Source: an uncultured Collinsella sp. (GTDB taxonomy: Bacteria; Actinomycetota; Coriobacteriia; Coriobacteriales; Coriobacteriaceae). Taken from it: a DNA stretch of 23,664 bases. The stretch spans positions 1 to 23,664 of the forward strand of contig CAKURW010000027.1 in the NCBI GenBank assembly GCA_934675795.1. The letters are read 5' to 3'. Position numbers and translations under genes: made by a program. The notes beneath the pieces were generated by a model. The model made no database searches. It had not been told where the DNA came from and saw only the letters and a list, made by a program, of their open reading frames with translations. Below, one piece after another: positions 46 to 22,004 of this stretch (position 1 is the first letter of the stretch; each line of letters opens with the position of its first letter).

Positions 46-1257
46 ATGCGTACCGATGATTTTGACTACAACCTTCCTGAGGAACTGATCGCCCAGGCGC
101 CTGCCGAGCCGCGCGACTCCTGCCGCCTGCTGGTGGTTGATCGCAAAGGCTCCGAGACAGGAACGCCGTTAGGGCATGGCGGCACCGTCGAGCACCGCAT
201 CTTCCGTGACATCATCGACTATATCGAGCCGGGCGACGTGCTCGTCATCAACCAGACGCGCGTGATGCCGGCCCGTCTTATCGGTCGCAAGACGGGCTCG
301 GGCGGCGTGGTCGAGACGTTGCTGCTCAAGCGCCGCGAGGATGTTGACCCGCTGGGCCATGTTTGGGAGTGCTTGGTCAAGCCGGGTAAGCGCCTGAAGC
401 CCGGTGCTCAGATTGAGTATCGCGCCGGTGGCGCTCATGCGCCCGAGGGGGCTCCCGTGGTGCTGACGGCCGAGGTCGTCGACTTTGTCACCGATAGTCG
501 CGGCGGCCGCCTGGTGCGTTTTGAGCCGGCCGGTTGCAATGCCGCCGGCGAGCCGCGCACGCTTGACGAGGCCATCCATGCTGCCGGTCACGTGCCGCTG
601 CCGCCCTACATTACCGATTACGAGGGCGATCCCGAGAAATATCAGACCGTGTACGCCATGAAGGAGGAGCACTCGGCTGCCGCTCCCACGGCGGGCCTGC
701 ATTTTACTCCTGAGCTCATGGCCGCTATCGAGGCCAAGGGTGCCAAGTTTGCCGCCGTCGAGCTCGAGGTGGGCATCGATACCTTCCGCTTGGTGGAGGA
801 GGACGACCCCACGCAGCACGTCATGCACACCGAGCGCTACCACGTGTCGCAGGAGGTTGTCGACGCCGTGCATAAGGCCAAGGCCGAGGGTCATCGTGTG
901 ATCGCCGTCGGCACTACCGCGGTGCGCTCGCTCGAGAGCGCGTTTGACACGGACGCGCCGGTGTCCGATCCGGCCGTGACGGCGCGCTATTTTGAAGGCC
1001 GCGAGGACGGGGCCGATACGCTTGGCCGCGGTGACATCGTGGTGCGCGAGAACGCCACGACGCAGCTTTACCTCATGCCCGGCTCGACCTATCACGTGGT
1101 CGACGCGCTGATCACGAACTTCCATGTGCCGCGCTCCACGCTCATGATGCTCGTGAGCGCGCTTGCCACCCGCGACCAGATCATGGATGCCTACGCCGCT
1201 GCCATCGAGGAGCGCTACCGCTTCTTCAGCTTTGGCGACGCGATGCTCATTTGTTAG
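46..1257 (+). CDS. queA: S-adenosylmethionine:tRNA ribosyltransferase-isomerase QueA
   Basis: QueA transfers and isomerises the ribosyl part of S-adenosylmethionine onto 7-aminomethyl-7-deazaguanine in tRNA, making epoxyqueuosine in the wobble position of GUN-anticodon tRNAs, in the cytoplasm. Family signatures are clear: an N-terminus reading FDYNLPEELIAQ, the motif AAPTAGLHFT, the block GTTAVRSLES and the C-terminal stretch DALITNFHVPRSTLMMLVSA ending in FFSFGDAMLI. The product is 403 residues, longer than the usual roughly 340-360 because of extra residues in the central region around 95-160. I chose ATG 46 over GTG 31 because AGAGG lies five bases before it and homologues begin MR-x-x-DFD. 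The stop codon lies in the first arm of a perfect hairpin. The partner gene tgt is 3.8 kb downstream, separated by two unrelated genes. Confidence 0.96.
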   Translation: MRTDDFDYNLPEELIAQAPAEPRDSCRLLVVDRKGSETGTPLGHGGTVEHRIFRDIIDYIEPGDVLVINQTRVMPARLIGRKTGSGGVVETLLLKRREDVDPLGHVWECLVKPGKRLKPGAQIEYRAGGAHAPEGAPVVLTAEVVDFVTDSRGGRLVRFEPAGCNAAGEPRTLDEAIHAAGHVPLPPYITDYEGDPEKYQTVYAMKEEHSAAAPTAGLHFTPELMAAIEAKGAKFAAVELEVGIDTFRLVEEDDPTQHVMHTERYHVSQEVVDAVHKAKAEGHRVIAVGTTAVRSLESAFDTDAPVSDPAVTARYFEGREDGADTLGRGDIVVRENATTQLYLMPGSTYHVVDALITNFHVPRSTLMMLVSALATRDQIMDAYAAAIEERYRFFSFGDAMLIC

Positions 1258-1284
1258 TTACGCGGTTCTACGAACCGCGTAACT
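1256..1284. repeat. 13-bp hairpin overlapping the queA stop codon
   Basis: AGTTACGCGGTTC (1256-1268) and GAACCGCGTAACT (1272-1284) are perfectly complementary around a TAC loop. The matching hairpin after the dehydrogenase gene (4601-4629) keeps the apical GTTC-TA(A)C-GAAC but has different lower-stem bases that still pair. No T-run follows, so it is not a textbook terminator. It is the first module of composite repeat copy 1. Confidence 0.8.
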
Positions 1285-1287
1285 GCT

Positions 1288-1430
1288 CGACGCTGCGCGG
1301 GCCGCATTTGGACAATCTGACGTTCAACTTCAAGGGCGCGACCAGAAGGTCAGCGCCCTTTCGTTTCACGTCACCTTGTCTCAAATGCGGCCCGCTCGCT
1401 GTCGTTGCCAAAACATCGGCGTTGCCGTGG
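1288..1430. repeat. Composite repeat copy 1: long hairpin with GACC-AGAA-GGTC apex
   Basis: Bases 1298-1394 form one imperfect hairpin of about 97 nt. CGGGCCGCATTTG pairs with CAAATGCGGCCCG. Inside it come GACAA/TTGTC, TGACGT/ACGTCA, AAC/GTT and AAGGGCGC/GCGCCCTT, separated by small internal loops, up to the apex GACC-AGAA-GGTC (1340-1351). The flanks CGACGCTGCGCGG (1288-1300) and a 37-nt 3' block (1394-1430) recur at 4633-4645 and 4740-4776; the 37-nt blocks differ at five positions. The stem sequence is not shared with copy 2, but the apex and the ability to fold are. Function unknown; I do not recognise it as a named RNA family. Confidence 0.75.
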
Positions 1431-1439
1431 TTGTCGCTG

Positions 1440-1553
1440 TAGTCATTGGGTAGTCATTGGGGACGTTCTTAAATGACTAGTCAAAGGGGACACTCTTACG
1501 GCACTTGGCACTTGGGGACGTTCCTTTTGTGCCGGCACCTGGGGACAGTCCTT
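1440..1553. repeat. GACTAGTC / GGGGAC dispersed repeat modules, copy 1
   Basis: An 11-nt tandem duplication (TAGTCATTGGG twice, from 1440) leads into GGGGACGTTCTTAAATGACT and then AGTCAAAGGGGACACTCTT, ending at 1497. Two units of the form GGCAC(C/T)TGGGGAC(G/A)(T/G)TCCTT follow (about 1507-1553). The first module recurs at 4799-4845 and, inverted, at 4911-4942. The second recurs at 4846-4879 and 21171-21202. No coding potential is evident. These are lineage-specific intergenic repeats of unknown role. Confidence 0.65.
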
Positions 1554-1604
1554 ATGTCAAGAGATCGGTGCAAGAGGGATAGGTTGCCTTGCGTCGATCT
1601 AAAT

Positions 1605-1672
1605 AAGTTGCGGTGAGATAGTTCTTGAATTGGCCTTTTTGGGGCTAAACAGAAACTTTCTCACCGCAACTG
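1605..1672. terminator. Palindromic repeat P, copy 1, between convergent genes; probable bidirectional terminator
   Basis: AGTTGCGGTGAGA (1606-1618) pairs perfectly with TCTCACCGCAACT (1659-1671), and the inner TAGTTCT pairs with AGAAACTT. The same arm sequence occurs at 7873-7939 and 14435-14503. It sits between queA (+) and the coiled-coil gene (-), 27 nt past the stop of the latter. A TTTTTT run follows on the + strand after a short gap. Termination is inferred from position and fold. Confidence 0.6.
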
Positions 1673-1698
1673 AGTTGAGGCGTTTTTTGGCAGCTGGT

Positions 1699-3492
1699 TT
1701 ACTTGCTCGCGAACAGCCAGATCAGGATGATTGCCAGAATCACGGCGACGATGCAGACGATGGCGCCAGTGAATTTGATGCGTGAGTCGCGGGTACGCTC
1801 GCGCACCGCGTCCTCGGTGGCCTCGAACTGGGCGACTTCTTGCTCGGTCTCGGCGTGTTCGGCTTTGTCTCGGGCCAAGGATCCTGCAAGCGACTCAGTG
1901 ATCTCTGGATGGTCATGCACCTCGGTCGCCTGCTCGATGATCGACTGTGCATGTGCGGCATCTGCTTGGGCGTTGGCGATGCTTTGCTCTTGGTCGCGGC
2001 GTGCCTTGTCCTCGGCGGCTATCTTCTCGCGCAGTTCGCGCTGGCGCGTCGTGGCGGCAGTTTTCGCCGTCTGCAGCTCGTCGCGCGCGGCATCGGCCTC
2101 AGTCGTCACGGCTTGGTGTGCGCGTTTGGCTTCGGCAATGGGGGCTTGAGCCTGCTCGACGGCCTGCTCGGCTGCGGCAAGCGAGTGCTCAAGGTCGGCG
2201 GTGATGCGCGGGACATCTTCTTCGGCTTTTCGCAGGGCATCTGCCGTGTCGGAGATCTGCATCGAGAGCTCGCTGGTGCGCACCGTATAGTTGGCGGGAT
2301 TTGCCGAGGGATTGCGTTGCAGCTCGGCATACTCATGACGCAGCGTCTCGAGCTGGGCGCGCGTGGCGTCGACGGTTTGTTGTGCGGCCGCAATGCCGGC
2401 GTCTCGCTCGGCCTTCACCTTGTCGCGGATGCGCTTGGAATCCTCAAGACGTCGAACGAGGCGGTTGCCGGTCTCGCGAGAGCTCGCCTCGCGGGCCTCC
2501 ACGGCGTCGAGCGCGGCCTTCAGGCGGAGCTCAGTCGCGTCATCCTCTGTCTTCATTTGTTCGAGCTGACCCTTGAGCTCTGCTACTTTGGAAGCATGGA
2601 CATCGCGATCGATTTCGGCTGCCGCAGCGGTCTTTTGCGCCGTGGCGATCGCCTGGCGCTGGTCGGCGACGATCTGGTCGTAGCGGCCTGCGATATCCTG
2701 GCGCGTCTCGAGTTCCTCGGCCTGATCGGCAATGCGCTGCTCAAGTTCGGCCAGGTGGGCGCGGGCATCGGCAAGTGCCTTTTTCGCGGCGTTCATCTCG
2801 CGCATGGCCGAGGCGCCCTGGGCGATAAAGGTGCCCACGGCGTTCGCGGTGTTCGAGACAGCGGTCCCCAGATCGCGGCTCGCGGCGGGGGAGTGCGGGG
2901 CGGTCGGGCGAGTGGTGTCGGCAGCGTCCGCATCGGCAGTCTGCGGCGCGGCGATATTGCCGGTACCGCCCTCGACCACAGAAAAGCCTGCTGCGTGCGG
3001 ATCGACCGCATCGGCGCCAATCGTGGGGTGCTCGAGCTGGAGAAACGAGGGCATGGTACTGCCCTGGTCGGCAACCGGAGTCTCGCCGGGCACAAAGGTC
3101 GAGGCCGCCTCGGCGGCCTCCTCTTCCTCGGCATCAATATCGGCATCGGCGACGGCGTCTTTCATCGCTTTGACGGCATCCATCATGGAGTCCATGACGG
3201 CATCGAGCTCTTCTTCCGAAGACACCTCGATGGGGCCTGCCGCCTGTGGCGCGGGGTCTGTGTCGGGTTCGGCATCGCTCGGCTCCGGCTGCTCGCTTTC
3301 GTCATGCTCGACAGTATCGTCTGTGTCTGTTGCTTTATCCGCATCGGCGTGCACATCTGCGGCAGCGGGCGCATCTGCGGTGGCGGGCGCATCGGTGGAG
3401 GCGTCGACGCAGGTAGGAGTATCGCAGTCGTCGACGGCGTCTGCGGAATGATCAATATGCTCTTGAGTCTGGGGGTCCAGCTCGTCTGTCAT
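1699..3492 (-). CDS. Tail-anchored coiled-coil protein with acidic disordered N-terminus
   Basis: I do not recognise a named family. The 597-residue product has three parts. Residues 1-205 are rich in Asp, Ala, Glu, Thr and Pro and look disordered. From about 227 to 545, repeated Glu/Ala/Lys/Gln heptad-like sequence predicts a long coiled coil (runs such as LADARAHLAELEQRIADQAE). A single hydrophobic helix at about 570-594 (FTGAIVCIVAVILAIILIWL) is followed by only FASK. There is no N-terminal signal peptide, so the body should lie in the cytoplasm, anchored by its C-terminus. I chose ATG 3492 because GAGGAG lies nine bases upstream; ATG 3498 is only three bases from it. It is transcribed alone, divergent from the dehydrogenase. 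A role in envelope or chromosome organisation is possible but unsupported. Confidence 0.8.
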   Translation of the reverse strand: MTDELDPQTQEHIDHSADAVDDCDTPTCVDASTDAPATADAPAAADVHADADKATDTDDTVEHDESEQPEPSDAEPDTDPAPQAAGPIEVSSEEELDAVMDSMMDAVKAMKDAVADADIDAEEEEAAEAASTFVPGETPVADQGSTMPSFLQLEHPTIGADAVDPHAAGFSVVEGGTGNIAAPQTADADAADTTRPTAPHSPAASRDLGTAVSNTANAVGTFIAQGASAMREMNAAKKALADARAHLAELEQRIADQAEELETRQDIAGRYDQIVADQRQAIATAQKTAAAAEIDRDVHASKVAELKGQLEQMKTEDDATELRLKAALDAVEAREASSRETGNRLVRRLEDSKRIRDKVKAERDAGIAAAQQTVDATRAQLETLRHEYAELQRNPSANPANYTVRTSELSMQISDTADALRKAEEDVPRITADLEHSLAAAEQAVEQAQAPIAEAKRAHQAVTTEADAARDELQTAKTAATTRQRELREKIAAEDKARRDQEQSIANAQADAAHAQSIIEQATEVHDHPEITESLAGSLARDKAEHAETEQEVAQFEATEDAVRERTRDSRIKFTGAIVCIVAVILAIILIWLFASK

Positions 3493-3786
3493 AGGCATGT
3501 GCTCCTCATCGTTGTTTGTCACCCTATGATAAGGTCTCGCGCCGACATCCCGCGCGCCGCAGCAAAGTTTCAAAACGTGTTCGATGGCTCGATCTGATAA
3601 CAATAACTCGGCCGTTTTATCCAGTTTGTACTTGACAATCCCTTCGCCGAACTACGTGGTGCCGTTCGCCTACCGCGGTCTTTTATTTTTGCTTGAACAC
3701 GCTAAAGTTGCATCTCAGCTTTTGGCGCGTGAAGTTGGATACGCGCAGTCGGCGGGCGTGCCCGTCGCGATTTGAAAGGACTTTGT
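3493..3786. other. Divergent intergenic region between coiled-coil gene and dehydrogenase
   Basis: This gap of 294 bases must hold the promoters of both flanking genes. A perfect TTGACA (3632-3637, + strand) has no good -10 hexamer at 15-18 bases. The stretch 3680-3720 is relatively AT-rich. No hairpin, repeat or convincing small gene is visible. Confidence 0.4.
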
Positions 3787-4587
3787 ATGGGACTTTTCAC
3801 TGGTAAGACCGTGATCGTCACCGGCGGCGGCAAGGCCACGCTTAAGGACGGTTCCGCTGGCTCCATCGGCTACGGCATCGATATCGCATTTGCCAAGGAG
3901 GGCGCGAACCTCGTCATCACCGGCCGCAACGTCGCCAAGCTCGAGGCCGCCAAGGAGTCTCTCGAGGCCGAGTACGGTGTCAAGGTTCTGCCTGTTCAGG
4001 CCGATGTCTCGGCTGGTCAGGACAACGAGGCCGTCGTCCAGAACGTCATCGACAAGGCCATTGAGGAGTTCGGCCGCATCGACGCCGTCGTCAACAATGC
4101 TCAGGCTAGCGCCTCGGGCGTGACCATCGCCGATCACACCATGGATCAGTTTAACCTGGCCATTTACTCCGGTCTGTATGCTACCTATCTGTACATGCAG
4201 AAGGCCTATCCGCACCTGAAGGAGACCAAGGGCTCCGTGGTCAACTTTGCCTCGGGCGCCGGCCTGTTTGGCAACTATGGCCAGTGCAGCTATGCTGCCG
4301 CCAAGGAGGGCATCCGCGGCCTGACCCGCGTTGCCGCCAACGAGTGGGGCAAGGACGGCATCAACGTCAACATCGTGTGCCCGCTTGCTTGGACCGCTGC
4401 GCTCGAGAACTTCCAGGATGCCTATCCCGAGGCGTTCAAGGCCAACGTCCACATGCCGCCGGCTGGTCACTACGGCGACGTCGAGAAGGAAATCGGCCGC
4501 GTGGTCGTTCAGCTCTGCGGTCCCGACTTTAAGTACATGAACGGCGAGACCGTCACCCTCGAGGGTGGCATGGGCCAGCGGCCGTAG
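3787..4587 (+). CDS. Short-chain dehydrogenase/reductase (SDR) family oxidoreductase
   Basis: A classical SDR, predicted to reduce or oxidise a hydroxyl/keto substrate with NAD(P)(H) in the cytoplasm. The 266-residue product has a Rossmann N-terminus (TVIVTGGG, residues 8-15), the NNA block at 103-105 followed by Gln instead of the usual Gly, catalytic Ser156, Tyr169 and Lys173 (Y-A-A-A-K), and a C-terminal G-E-T-V-T-L-E-G-G. The cofactor loop is unusual: about seven extra residues (KATLKDG) separate TGGG from SIGYG. Arg47 after beta-2 could favour NADP(H). Codon use is strongly biased to C/G-ending codons, suggesting high expression. ATG 3787 has GAAAGGA six bases upstream. The substrate cannot be read from sequence; a hydroxysteroid or sugar/polyol substrate is possible but unproven. 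Confidence 0.9.
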   Translation: MGLFTGKTVIVTGGGKATLKDGSAGSIGYGIDIAFAKEGANLVITGRNVAKLEAAKESLEAEYGVKVLPVQADVSAGQDNEAVVQNVIDKAIEEFGRIDAVVNNAQASASGVTIADHTMDQFNLAIYSGLYATYLYMQKAYPHLKETKGSVVNFASGAGLFGNYGQCSYAAAKEGIRGLTRVAANEWGKDGINVNIVCPLAWTAALENFQDAYPEAFKANVHMPPAGHYGDVEKEIGRVVVQLCGPDFKYMNGETVTLEGGMGQRP

Positions 4588-4600
4588 GGGTTACGTCTCA

Positions 4601-4629
4601 GGTTCCGCCGTTCTAACGAACGGCGGACC
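4601..4629. repeat. 12-bp hairpin downstream of the dehydrogenase gene
   Basis: GGTTCCGCCGTTC (4601-4613) pairs with GAACGGCGGACC (4618-4629) around TAAC, with one bulged T. It matches the hairpin after queA in its GTTC-TA(A)C-GAAC apex and position, but its lower stem has different, still complementary bases. First module of composite repeat copy 2. Confidence 0.75.
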
Positions 4630-4632
4630 AGC

Positions 4633-4776
4633 CGACGCTGCGCGGTCACCAGAGCGACAACTTGTCATTCAAAGAGGACGGCATGACCAGAAGGTCTATG
4701 CCGTCCTCTTTTCATGCCAATTTGTTCGCTCTGGCGACCGCTCGCTGACGTTGTCAGAGCATCGGCGTTGCCTTGG
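4633..4776. repeat. Composite repeat copy 2: long hairpin with GACC-AGAA-GGTC apex
   Basis: Bases 4642-4741 fold into one hairpin of about 100 nt. GCGGTC-x-CCAGAGCGA pairs with TCGCTCTGG-x-GACCGC, and GAGGACGGCAT pairs with ATGCCGTCCTC, topped by the same GACC-AGAA-GGTC apex (4685-4696) as copy 1. The outer flanks CGACGCTGCGCGG and the 37-nt 3' block (4740-4776) are shared with copy 1, whereas the stems are different sequences that each stay self-complementary. It follows a + strand gene, as copy 1 does. Confidence 0.75.
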
Positions 4777-4798
4777 CCGTTGGAAATAATCCCAGATG

Positions 4799-4845
4799 TA
4801 GTCGTTGGGGACGTTCTTAAATGACTAGTCGAAAGGGACGCTCTT
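4799..4845. repeat. GACTAGTC / GGGGAC dispersed repeat module, copy 2
   Basis: This block nearly repeats 1451-1497: TAGTCGTTGGGGACGTTC, then TTAAATGACTAGTCGAAAGG and GACGCTCTT. It lies about the same distance after the long hairpin as in copy 1 (roughly 22 nt), so hairpin and module travel together as one composite element. Confidence 0.7.
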
Positions 4846-4879
4846 GCCGGCACCTGGGGACGGTCCCTAAGTGCCGGCA
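4845..4879. repeat. GCCGGCAC hairpin within the GGGGAC repeat family
   Basis: TGCCGGCAC (4845-4853) and GTGCCGGCA (4871-4879) form a perfect 9-bp stem enclosing CTGGGGACGGTCCCTAA. The internal unit belongs to the same GGCACCTGGGGAC family seen at about 1507-1553 and 21171-21202. No T-run follows. Confidence 0.6.
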
Positions 4880-4910
4880 GATTGGGACACTTCTTTGCAA
4901 GATGGCGCTG

Positions 4911-4942
4911 AAGATTGTCCCCGACGACTAGTCGTTTAATGC
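4911..4942 (-). repeat. Inverted copy of the GACTAGTC module upstream of tgt
   Basis: Read on the - strand, this gives TTAAACGACTAGTCG, then TCGGGGACAATCTT, matching TTAAA(T)GACTAGTC...GGGGAC(A)CTCTT of the direct copies at 1466-1497 and 4813-4845. It ends about 40 bases before the tgt -10 box. Confidence 0.55.
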
Positions 4943-5025: not shown

Positions 5026-6165
<1,140 letters not shown>

Positions 6166-7859: not shown

Positions 7860-7871
7860 TCGCCGATTTCC

Positions 7872-7940
7872 AAGTTGCGGTGGAATAGGGACTGATTTGC
7901 GGTCGATTGGCCAAAAACAGTCCCTATTTCACCGCAACTG
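7872..7940. terminator. Palindromic repeat P, copy 2, between convergent toxin and helicase genes
   Basis: AGTTGCGGTG-g-AATAGGGACTG (7873-7894) pairs with CAGTCCCTATT-t-CACCGCAACT (7918-7939): 21 pairs with a single mismatch. It starts 13 bases after the toxin stop and ends 41 bases before the helicase stop on the other strand. Position suggests a bidirectional terminator, but no T-run follows directly on either strand. Confidence 0.6.
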
Positions 7941-7980
7941 ATAGGCGCGCCCCGTTCGCTGCTGCGGCCCCCGGTTCTCC

Positions 7981-12976: not shown

Positions 12977-14413
12977 ATGAATCAGGTGGAGCAGAGCGTT
13001 GCCGAGTATGTCGACGAGGTTTGGGAAGACGTCGTCGCCGACATTGCGCAGCTGGTGAGCTATCCGTCTGTCGCCGTTACTGCCGATGCGGAGCCCGGTG
13101 CGCCGTTTGGCCGCCCGGTCCGTGACGCACTCGATTGCGCGCTCGGCATCGCGCAAAAGCTCGGCTACCAGACGAGCGACGATGAGGGCTATGTGGGTAT
13201 CGCCGATATCCCGGGCCGCGGCGACAAACAGCTCGCGACCATCTGCCACGTGGACGTGGTGCCCGCCGGTCCGGGTTGGAACACTGACCCGTTTGCGATG
13301 GAGCGTCGCGAGGGCTGGCTGCTCGGTCGCGGTGTGATTGACGACAAGGGCCCGGCCGTGCTGTCGCTCTACGCCGGCGCCTACCTGCTCAAGCACGGCA
13401 TTACCCCGCGCTACACCTTCCGCGCGCTGCTGGGCTGCGATGAGGAAGTGGGCATGTCCGACGTTCAGCATTATCTGGAGAACTACCCGAACCCCGACTT
13501 TTTGTTTACGCCCGATGCCGAGTTCCCGGTCTGCAATGCCGAGAAGGGCCAGTTTGGGGCGACGTTTGTGAGCCTCAAGATCGACGGCGGGCGCATTGTG
13601 TCCTGGAGCGGTGCCGAGGCGAGCAATGCCATTCCGTCGCAGTCCATTTGTGAGCTTGCGATTGCCGCCGAGGAGCTGCCGGCGCCGGTCGAGAACGTCG
13701 ACCGTCTGGAGATCACGGCGCTCGAGAATGGCAATGCACAGATTTTCGCCCACGGTATCGGCGGCCACGCCTCGATGCCCGAGGGCACGATCAATGCCGT
13801 CGGCCTGATCGTGGCGTACCTGCGCGAGGTCGAGGACGCGTTTGGTGCGCGTGACGAGCGCCTGCTGACGCCTGCCGAGCACGAGTTTGTCAAGTTCCTG
13901 GCCTTCGTGCACGCGGATGCCTATGGCCGCGGCCTAGGGATTGATGCGACGAGCGCGGCGTTTGGCCCGCTCACCTGCAATCCCGGTGTCATCCGTGTGG
14001 CGGATGGCCATATTGAGCAGGTCATCGACGTGCGCTTCCCCGACAGCACGAGCGCCGACACCATTTGCGAGCAGCTGGAGCCGCTCGTCGGGCGTTTTGG
14101 CGTGACGTGTCGCTTGGGCCGTGCTAAGGTGCCGTTCTCGGTGTCCGCCGACGATCCGGCCGTGAAGGCGCTCATCGACACCTATAACGAGTTTACGGGC
14201 AAGCACGCCGAGCCCTTCGCCATGGGCGGCGGCACGTACGCGCGCAACTTTGCCCGCGCCGTGTCGTTTGGTCCCGAGGAGACCGGCCTGGAGCTGCCCG
14301 CGTGGGGCGGCCAGATGCACGGCCCCAACGAGTGCGCCAACGAGGAACAGCTCAAACAAGCGCTCAAGATCTATATTGTTGCGATCCTCCGTTTGAATGA
14401 ATTGGAGCTTTAA
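12977..14413 (+). CDS. M20 family metallopeptidase, PepV/Sapep-like dipeptidase
   Basis: A 478-residue zinc or manganese dipeptidase of the PepV type, hydrolysing dipeptides in the cytoplasm. Metal-site motifs in order: CHVDVVP (His91, Asp93), GRGVIDDKGP (bridging Asp122), GCDEEVG (catalytic Glu156 and ligand Glu157), TPDAEFP (Asp180) and a C-terminal QMHGPNE His. The GGGTYARN block near the C-terminus is typical of PepV. The lid domain lies between about residues 190 and 380. ATG 12977 has AAGGAGG six bases upstream; a TTG at 12959 in the same frame lacks one. It ends 21 bases before a strong hairpin with a T-rich tail. It probably supports amino acid scavenging from peptides. Confidence 0.92.
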   Translation: MNQVEQSVAEYVDEVWEDVVADIAQLVSYPSVAVTADAEPGAPFGRPVRDALDCALGIAQKLGYQTSDDEGYVGIADIPGRGDKQLATICHVDVVPAGPGWNTDPFAMERREGWLLGRGVIDDKGPAVLSLYAGAYLLKHGITPRYTFRALLGCDEEVGMSDVQHYLENYPNPDFLFTPDAEFPVCNAEKGQFGATFVSLKIDGGRIVSWSGAEASNAIPSQSICELAIAAEELPAPVENVDRLEITALENGNAQIFAHGIGGHASMPEGTINAVGLIVAYLREVEDAFGARDERLLTPAEHEFVKFLAFVHADAYGRGLGIDATSAAFGPLTCNPGVIRVADGHIEQVIDVRFPDSTSADTICEQLEPLVGRFGVTCRLGRAKVPFSVSADDPAVKALIDTYNEFTGKHAEPFAMGGGTYARNFARAVSFGPEETGLELPAWGGQMHGPNECANEEQLKQALKIYIVAILRLNELEL

Positions 14414-14434
14414 GGTCTCGCGGTTTCCCAATCT

Positions 14435-14512
14435 AAGTTGCGGTGGAATAGTTCCTAGAATGGGCCATTTGATGGCCAAGCAGGAACTATTTCACCGCAA
14501 CTTTGTTTTTAT
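14435..14512 (+). terminator. Palindromic repeat P, copy 3: dipeptidase terminator
   Basis: AAGTTGCGGTG-g-AATAGTTCCT (14435-14456) pairs with AGGAACTATT-t-CACCGCAACTT (14482-14503): 21 pairs with one mismatch, and an inner GGGCCAT/ATGGCC pair. It is followed by TGTTTTTATT, making this copy a convincing intrinsic terminator. Arms and inner bases closely match copy 1 at 1605-1672. Confidence 0.75.
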
Positions 14513-21877: not shown

Positions 21878-22004
21878 GGCCGGGGCCGGGTTTGGTTTTG
21901 AAAACACTCCACAGCGCGAGGCCCGCCTTTCCGTTGCTCCGCAGGAGCAGGAAAGACGGGCCTCATGCGCGAGGACGTTTTCAAAACCAAGCCCGGTCCC
22001 GGCC
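21878..22004. repeat. 127-nt long hairpin between convergent genes
   Basis: The outer arms are 28 bases each: GGCCGGGGCCGGG with TTTGGTTTTGAAAAC (21878-21905) pairs fully with 21977-22004, allowing two G-U wobbles. Inside, GCGC pairs with GCGC, GAGGCCCG with CGGGCCTC, CTTTCC with GGAAAG, and the apex is TGCTCC-GCA-GGAGCA. It ends 16 bases before the ATPase stop codon. Its position suggests a transcription barrier or an RNA processing site between two converging genes. No T-run flanks it. Confidence 0.75.

What the first reader, a model, noticed from the sequence alone, without database searches (positions are those of the whole stretch)
1288..4776. Two long hairpins with different stems but an identical apex and conserved flanks
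Hairpins at 1298-1394 and 4642-4741 share GACC-AGAA-GGTC at the tip, CGACGCTGCGCGG on the 5' side and a 37-nt 3' flank (five differences). The roughly 40-bp stems between are unrelated in sequence yet each self-complementary. Small hairpins just before them (1256-1284, 4601-4629) show the same pattern: constant GTTC-TA(A)C-GAAC tip, different paired arms. Compensatory change of this extent suggests selection on the fold, as in a structured RNA, a protein-bound cruciform, or a mobile hairpin element. I do not recognise it as a named family.
Basis: partly seen in the sequence, partly recalled or inferred. Interest (0 to 1): 0.78.

Follow-up and report, generated by a model that had tools for sequence, protein, structure and literature searches.

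The report
Swapped hairpin repeats after stop codons
Collinsella and related gut bacteria carry dozens of long DNA hairpins placed just behind the stop codons of ordinary genes, and the hairpin at a given gene can be a quite different one from strain to strain, which makes it an apparently undescribed, fast-changing kind of gene-end repeat.

Summary
The hairpins are real (fold z -9.6 and -10.2) and belong to a family with 29, 44 and 40 places in three genomes. A covariance model matches 124 of 297 Coriobacteriales genomes; in a phylum-wide draw 6 of 149 match, all of this order. Rfam: no match. Of 174 instances with a gene called upstream, 171 follow a gene on the same strand and 152 start within 60 nt of its stop codon. 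The fold persists while stems vary: 93.4% of cells paired, 32 of 38 pairs changed on both sides. Stems form discrete types that differ as blocks at fixed sites: at 14 of 26 loci shared by three genomes LH identity falls below 85%. Mosaics keep an old 5' half up to its tip before a complete copy, or an old 3' half after one. Elements sit where relatives often have terminators. The antisense strand folds better in 76 of 77 elements, against a plain sense-RNA reading. Best reading: a recombining palindromic gene-end repeat standing in for terminators; mover and acting strand unproven.

The parts
1256..1284 (+). small hairpin SH1 (GTTACGCGGTTC-TAC-GAACCGCGTAAC); it overlaps the queA stop codon (TAG 1255-1257)
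   Evidence: queA ORF 31-1257 (gene name from my knowledge of the translation; no family search run)
1288..1404 (+). long hairpin LH1, type A; apex 1340-1351
   Evidence: R2 match 1288-1397, 117.2 bits, E 1.3e-22
1405..1430 (+). conserved tail
4590..4600 (+). stub GTTACGTCTCA, read as remains of an older small hairpin behind the stop codon (TAG 4585-4587) of the short-chain dehydrogenase gene (SDR)
   Evidence: comparison with L005 and other strains; inference
4601..4629 (+). small hairpin SH2 (GTTCCGCCGTTC-TAAC-GAACGGCGGACC)
4633..4743 (+). long hairpin LH2, type B; apex 4685-4696
   Evidence: R2 match 107.2 bits, E 2.1e-20
14411..14430 (+). comparison site without the element: stop codon of a peptidase-like gene (14411-14413) followed by a stub resembling half a small hairpin; a related genome (L315, gene end 94% identical) carries a complete element here
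   Evidence: the stub reading is inference

Best explanation
The two hairpins are copies of a dispersed, non-coding palindromic repeat of Coriobacteriales built as stop codon - small hairpin - 3 to 5 nt - long hairpin (about 105-117 nt) - tail. SHOWN: it lies mostly just behind stop codons in the sense orientation; the fold with its internal loops is kept while stems differ; stem types are discrete and differ as whole blocks at fixed gene ends; half-hairpin remnants border complete copies, and the three upstream ones break at the old hairpin's tip; at several orthologous ends without it an ordinary terminator is found. INFERRED: it takes over the 3'-end job of the terminator (stopping transcription or shielding the message), and a new copy enters an old one at or near the apex, by ectopic recombination or template switching at the hairpin, after which recombination between repeated flanks removes the remaining half. 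This explains an identical apex and flanks around different but self-complementary stems: whole hairpins move together, so pairing is inherited with each block. Copying from one arm to the other may also keep arms matched (my reading of the near-perfect palindrome L137 and of the 5' arm of L039).
For: Placement: of 174 instances with a gene called upstream (185 in all; redundant orthologs included), 152 start <=60 nt after a same-strand stop, with peaks at 30-36 nt (small hairpin between) and a minor group at 2-8 nt; 171 of 174 upstream genes are on the same strand. Fold: 93.4% of cells paired against 70.2% shuffled and 31-43% when slid; 32 of 38 pairs with both-side changes, 0 of 500 shuffles. 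Swapping: 67 of 105 queA pairs and 76 of 136 SDR pairs of strains differ in type although gene-end identity is alike in same-type and different-type pairs (0.945 vs 0.945; 0.958 vs 0.953); L269/L270 have an identical 300-nt gene end but 71% LH identity; arms pair with their own partner (mean 0.73 and 0.75) better than across types (0.57). Three few-contig genomes: 11 of 12 loci shared by all three and 3 of 14 shared by two have an LH pair under 85% identity, with upstream identity mostly 92-99%. Mosaics: 5' halves ending at the old apex in L133, L272, L283; 3' halves in seven distinct Collinsella sequences, from about three loci by my reading. Terminators: 0 of 23 element-bearing gene ends have a terminator-like site within 70 nt of the stop and 4 of 23 have one beyond LH within about 320 nt; 10 of 14 fetched orthologous ends without the element have one within about 200 nt; 0 terminator-like sites in either window region by the stricter tool. 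Allelic pair: element in L110, plain bidirectional terminator in L057, gene end 97% identical.
Against: No expression data exist here, so a 3'-end role is inferred from position only. At a third allele of the L110/L057 gene end (L055) I see neither the element nor an obvious terminator, and only 56 of 131 other gene ends score at all in my scan. No copy with both halves of an old element around a new one was found (0 instances). No within-genome homogenisation, which simple gene conversion might predict (A: 156 of 500, B: 441 of 500 permutations as high). Own-arm and cross-arm pairing overlap at the edges (queA own minimum 0.691, cross maximum 0.714). Most long-diverged types keep their sites. 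One chimera has a broken outer stem (L143/L276), so pairing is not strictly required. Most genomes are short-read assemblies in which repeats may be mis-joined; G001, G002 and G024 (3, 1 and 3 contigs) are the safer ones. The instance finder requires [CT]GACGCTG, so copies without it are missed.
Confidence: 0.55

Rival explanations
1. The folded bottom (antisense) strand is the working form: an antisense RNA, or single-stranded DNA, recognised by a protein through tandem G-A mismatches and a stable apical loop.
For: Antisense folds better than sense in 76 of 77 thinned elements, mean 9.5 kcal/mol with RNA and 4.25 with DNA parameters. The conserved sense loops TC/TC and TC/CC read GA/GA and GA/GG on the bottom strand; the 11 sense apices CCGAAG read CTTCGG there.
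Against: No promoter, partner protein or expression evidence was sought or found for the bottom strand, apart from a consensus promoter scan with 0 hits on either strand of both window regions. The sense strand also pairs well. Orientation follows the upstream gene, which a sense-strand role explains more simply.
Confidence: 0.2
2. A sense-strand structured RNA (3'-UTR element or 3'-UTR-derived small RNA) under base-by-base compensatory selection.
For: Strong covariation, sense orientation in 171 of 174, and spread through the order.
Against: No G-U excess (23 G-U vs 28 A-C distinct mismatches); sense fold weaker than antisense; within the main clade stems differ as blocks.
Confidence: 0.15
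3. A REP-like transposable element moved by a Y1/RAYT transposase.
For: Y1_Tnp genes occur in 11 of 14 tested Collinsella and 175 of 297 genomes of the order; tandem and nested copies exist.
Against: 28 of 30 fetched Y1_Tnp loci (about 1.5 kb to each side) show none of the searched motifs and the other two one short motif each; one RAYT locus (L165) has other repeats of the TTGGGGACAGAC kind beside it. Element-bearing genomes G183, G195, G096, G115, G272 and G179 (10-21 element rows) have no Y1_Tnp match.
Confidence: 0.08
4. The type differences reflect only old alleles reshuffled between strains by ordinary homologous recombination, plus assembly errors; no special element dynamics.
For: Same type at the same locus is slightly more alike than at other loci (0.981 vs 0.965, type A); several contigs end inside the element.
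Against: The same types occur at many loci, so type must have moved between loci at some time; differences are seen in few-contig genomes; remnants carry half hairpins.
Confidence: 0.1

Closest known systems
REP / BIME / REPIN repeats with RAYT transposases
   Same: Intergenic palindromic repeats; in E. coli 446 of 4,072 predicted REPs lie within 15 nt of a stop codon, and such REPs are reported to stall ribosomes (passages of PMC12306157).
   Different: REPs are given as 20-40 bp, most with a GTAG or CGTC tag (PMC3733652, abstract and passages); this is a 105-117 nt hairpin plus a separate small hairpin, mostly just behind a stop codon in one orientation, with differing stem types and no transposase found beside it.
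ERIC, NEMIS/Correia and similar roughly 100-150 nt palindromic repeats (recalled)
   Same: Long imperfect palindromes, dispersed, often transcribed with the gene upstream.
   Different: The stop-codon rule, conserved loops with variable stems and block swapping are not features I recall for them. No sequence comparison with them was made here.
Intrinsic transcription terminators
   Same: Position behind the stop codon; in some types a GC-rich apical hairpin is followed by a T-containing stretch (8 of 23 score in my scan).
   Different: No site by the stricter tool in the window regions; far longer; a repeated family with conserved internal loops.
Integron attC sites (recalled)
   Same: Structure-conserved, sequence-variable hairpins right behind stop codons, active as folded bottom strand.
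   Different: Integrase and core-site boxes were not searched for; the two window neighbours look like housekeeping chromosomal genes, not cassettes.

Membership tests
REP/RAYT (GTAG- or CGTC-tagged) | 20-40 bp palindrome | tested here: not met
   LH 105-117 nt; the small hairpin alone (about 28 nt) would fit that size
REP/RAYT (GTAG- or CGTC-tagged) | RAYT gene flanked by the repeats | tested here: not met
   28 of 30 fetched Y1_Tnp loci without any searched motif, 2 with one short motif match
REP/RAYT (GTAG- or CGTC-tagged) | unpaired GTAG or CGTC tag at one end | tested here: inconclusive
   by eye only: GTAG precedes some copies where it contains the stop codon; CGTC lies in the paired base of LH on the bottom strand
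Intrinsic terminator | GC hairpin followed by a T tract | tested here: not met
   0 found in either window region by the scan tool; by my looser scan the LH's own apical hairpin scores in 8 of 23 element ends, LH2 among them
Intrinsic terminator | terminates transcription | not testable with these tools
   no expression data
Known structured RNA | reaches an Rfam gathering score | tested here: not met
   0 in the window; only hits far below gathering scores
ERIC/NEMIS-like repeat | sequence of the family | not tested
   recalled family; no reference sequence used
attC site | integrase recombination with core-site boxes | not tested
   resemblance recalled only

The most novel reading that the evidence does not exclude
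An order-wide class of gene-end elements whose functional form is the folded bottom strand (tandem G-A helices), which copy themselves into the tip of an existing copy and overwrite it, so that each gene's 3' end is a docking site cycling through a pool of interchangeable hairpins in place of a terminator.
Probability: 0.2. Interest if true: 0.85.

Novelty: new variant of a known kind. Interest (0 to 1): 0.62.

Why it matters
Fixed gene ends whose long hairpin differs en bloc between strains while the fold and internal loops stay constant give a natural test of how DNA palindromes spread, survive and keep both arms matched, and of how a repeat can take over a terminator's place. It also means that the 3' UTRs of a common gut genus can differ radically between strains with identical proteins.

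Tried and rejected
Known RNA families: none. Viral contigs: the exact conserved pattern has 0 matches. RAYT as driver: not supported. Wobble asymmetry as a sign of RNA selection: negative. Within-genome homogenisation: negative. Old 5' half and old 3' half around one new copy: 0 instances. Literature: seven searches (listings seen) and passages of three papers (PMC8040213, PMC3733652, PMC12306157) gave no description of this element. PMC8040213 reports 250 palindromic candidates from human microbiomes in tables that I did not see, so an earlier unnamed listing cannot be excluded.

Rows dropped: 8 of 88 pattern loci from other taxa treated as chance (L001, L012, L020, L045, L046, L070, L074, L088). 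21 of 82 copies had no recognised 3' end at first extraction, partly recovered. 11 of 185 instances had no gene called upstream. 8 of 87 loci had no readable orientation, which also used at most 30 loci per genome. 6 of 21 queA and 3 of 20 SDR loci had no complete single LH. Of the ends without the element, one search used the 9 fetched queA loci and 5 SDR loci; 12 further queA matches were not fetched, and L259 was left out because it has an LH-like hairpin. Three queA copies (L267, L268, L282) have own-arm pairing under 0.7. L239 is visibly damaged. A first hand reading gave 13 of 26 differing loci; the recount by identity gives 14.

Full report
WHAT IS THERE. The window carries queA (ORF 31-1257, +), a coiled-coil ORF (1699-3603, -), a short-chain dehydrogenase gene (SDR, ORF ending at 4587, +) and tgt (5026-6165, +) (gene names are mine from the translations). 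Directly behind the queA and SDR stop codons lie a small hairpin (SH) and a long hairpin (LH). Both regions fold at z -9.6 and -10.2 with 0 of 200 shuffles as good. No Rfam family reaches its gathering score, and lax searches gave only hits far below it.

A REPEAT FAMILY. A pattern scan of genome contigs for the 5' flank plus apex returned 88 stretches, 80 of them in Collinsella (taxa of all 88); 0 in viral contigs. A first covariance model gave 22-42 rows in 21 of 43 genomes of the genus and 0-7 in the other 22 (rows include opposite-strand duplicates). A second model from 32 diverse copies matched 124 of 297 genomes of the order, in 34 of 107 genera, at E <= 1e-3 (stricter filters, 12 candidates per genome scored). 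In a draw over the phylum 6 of 149 genomes matched, all from this order, which serves as the negative control (also stricter filters). In 12 chosen genomes of other genera there were 2-42 rows. The loci I read from other genera and families mostly keep the same order of parts with different sequences: stop codon, SH (sometimes absent), [CT]GACGCTGC, LH, CGCTG.

STRUCTURE. On the diverse alignment with a named structure, 93.4% of cells form standard pairs (70.2% after shuffling, 31-43% when partners are slid), and 32 of 38 pairs show changes on both sides. The structure was derived from this alignment, which favours it somewhat. Conserved unpaired positions form 2x2 loops, mostly TC/TC and TC/CC on the sense strand; type B differs at one of them.

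PLACEMENT. Using a simple codon-usage gene caller, 174 of 185 instances have a gene called upstream. In 171 it lies on the same strand; 152 start within 60 nt of its stop (peaks 30-36 nt, a minor group at 2-8); several of the rest are second copies in tandem. Instances include orthologs. Of 23 distinct element-bearing gene ends, 0 have a terminator-like site within 70 nt of the stop, 4 have one beyond LH within about 320 nt, and in 8 the LH's own apical hairpin scores; among 131 other gene ends 56 score, 32 of them within 70 nt. At 14 fetched orthologous queA or SDR ends without the element, 10 have a terminator-like site. At one gene end, strains with 97% identical genes carry either the element (L110) or a bidirectional terminator (L057); a third allele (L055) shows neither to my eye.

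BLOCK SWAPPING. LH sequences fall into discrete types; type A and type B copies at different loci are about 96% identical within type. All 21 fetched queA loci and 19 of 20 fetched SDR loci of the main clade carry an element or part of one (L239 is damaged), but the type varies. Same-type and different-type pairs have alike gene-end identity; one pair has identical gene ends and 71% LH identity. Among G001, G002 and G024, 26 loci are shared; 11 of 12 three-way and 3 of 14 two-way loci have an LH pair under 85% identity. By eye, SH and tail also vary in combination with LH. In L133, L272 and L283 the 5' half of an older LH runs up to its apex and is followed by a complete new SH-LH; in seven distinct Collinsella sequences, from about three loci, the 3' half of an older LH follows a complete copy; two more such cases lie in another genus. 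In L272 seven nucleotides before the new SH (TTTGTAG) match the gene end beside another element (L139), which is suggestive only. L248 and L255 have lost most of the LH between short direct repeats. L137 is a nearly perfect palindrome with an inverted apex, and L351 also has an inverted apex.

WHICH STRAND. Isolated mismatches show no G-U excess (23 vs 28 A-C). The antisense strand folds better in 76 of 77 thinned elements (of 151 unique) with RNA parameters (mean 9.5 kcal/mol) and in 76 of 77 with DNA parameters (4.25); I ascribe this to the conserved loops, which become G-A rich there. This is the main reason not to call the element a sense-strand RNA.

MOVEMENT. Y1/RAYT transposase genes exist, but in 28 of 30 fetched loci no searched motif lies nearby, and several element-bearing genomes lack a Y1 match. 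No other mover was searched for. Ectopic recombination or template switching at the hairpin tip is inferred from the breakpoints.

VERDICT. A real, order-wide and, as far as the searches named here show, undescribed palindromic gene-end repeat with conserved loops and interchangeable stems. It may work like a terminator-replacing REP/ERIC-type repeat but fails two of the three REP membership tests made here, the third being inconclusive. Function and mover remain to be shown.

Noticed in passing
window 1450-1560 and 4798-4940: Downstream of both elements lie repeats with TTGGGGACGTTC or GGGGACAGTC cores. One RAYT locus (L165) has similar TTGGGGACAGAC repeats beside it, so these may be Collinsella's own REP families.
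   Followed up: partly
window 1604-1676, 7871-7941, 14434-14504: A third palindromic repeat (AAGTTGCGGTG...CACCGCAACT) occurs three times; the copy at 14434 ends in a T-rich stretch and may act as a terminator.
   Followed up: no
window 21878-22004: Another long hairpin (55-nt arms, 78% complementary, 17 nt between) lies directly behind the stop codon of a gene on the - strand that I read as a P-type ATPase; the R2 model does not match it at E <= 1e-3.
   Followed up: no
called genes in the Collinsella and related loci: Stop codon usage looks unusual: TAG 264, TAA 163, TGA 16 of 443 called gene ends, in a rough gene call biased to element-bearing loci and with orthologs counted repeatedly.
   Followed up: no
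L267, L269, L256 and others, downstream of or inside the 3' end of LH: A shared sequence beginning CATATGACCCAATCCGCTGTC follows the LH directly in several strains, perhaps another insertion that meets the element there.
   Followed up: no
L073 and L259: Older-looking LH-like hairpins without SH or the GACGCTGC base lie directly behind the stop codon, with an ordinary-looking terminator further on.
   Followed up: partly
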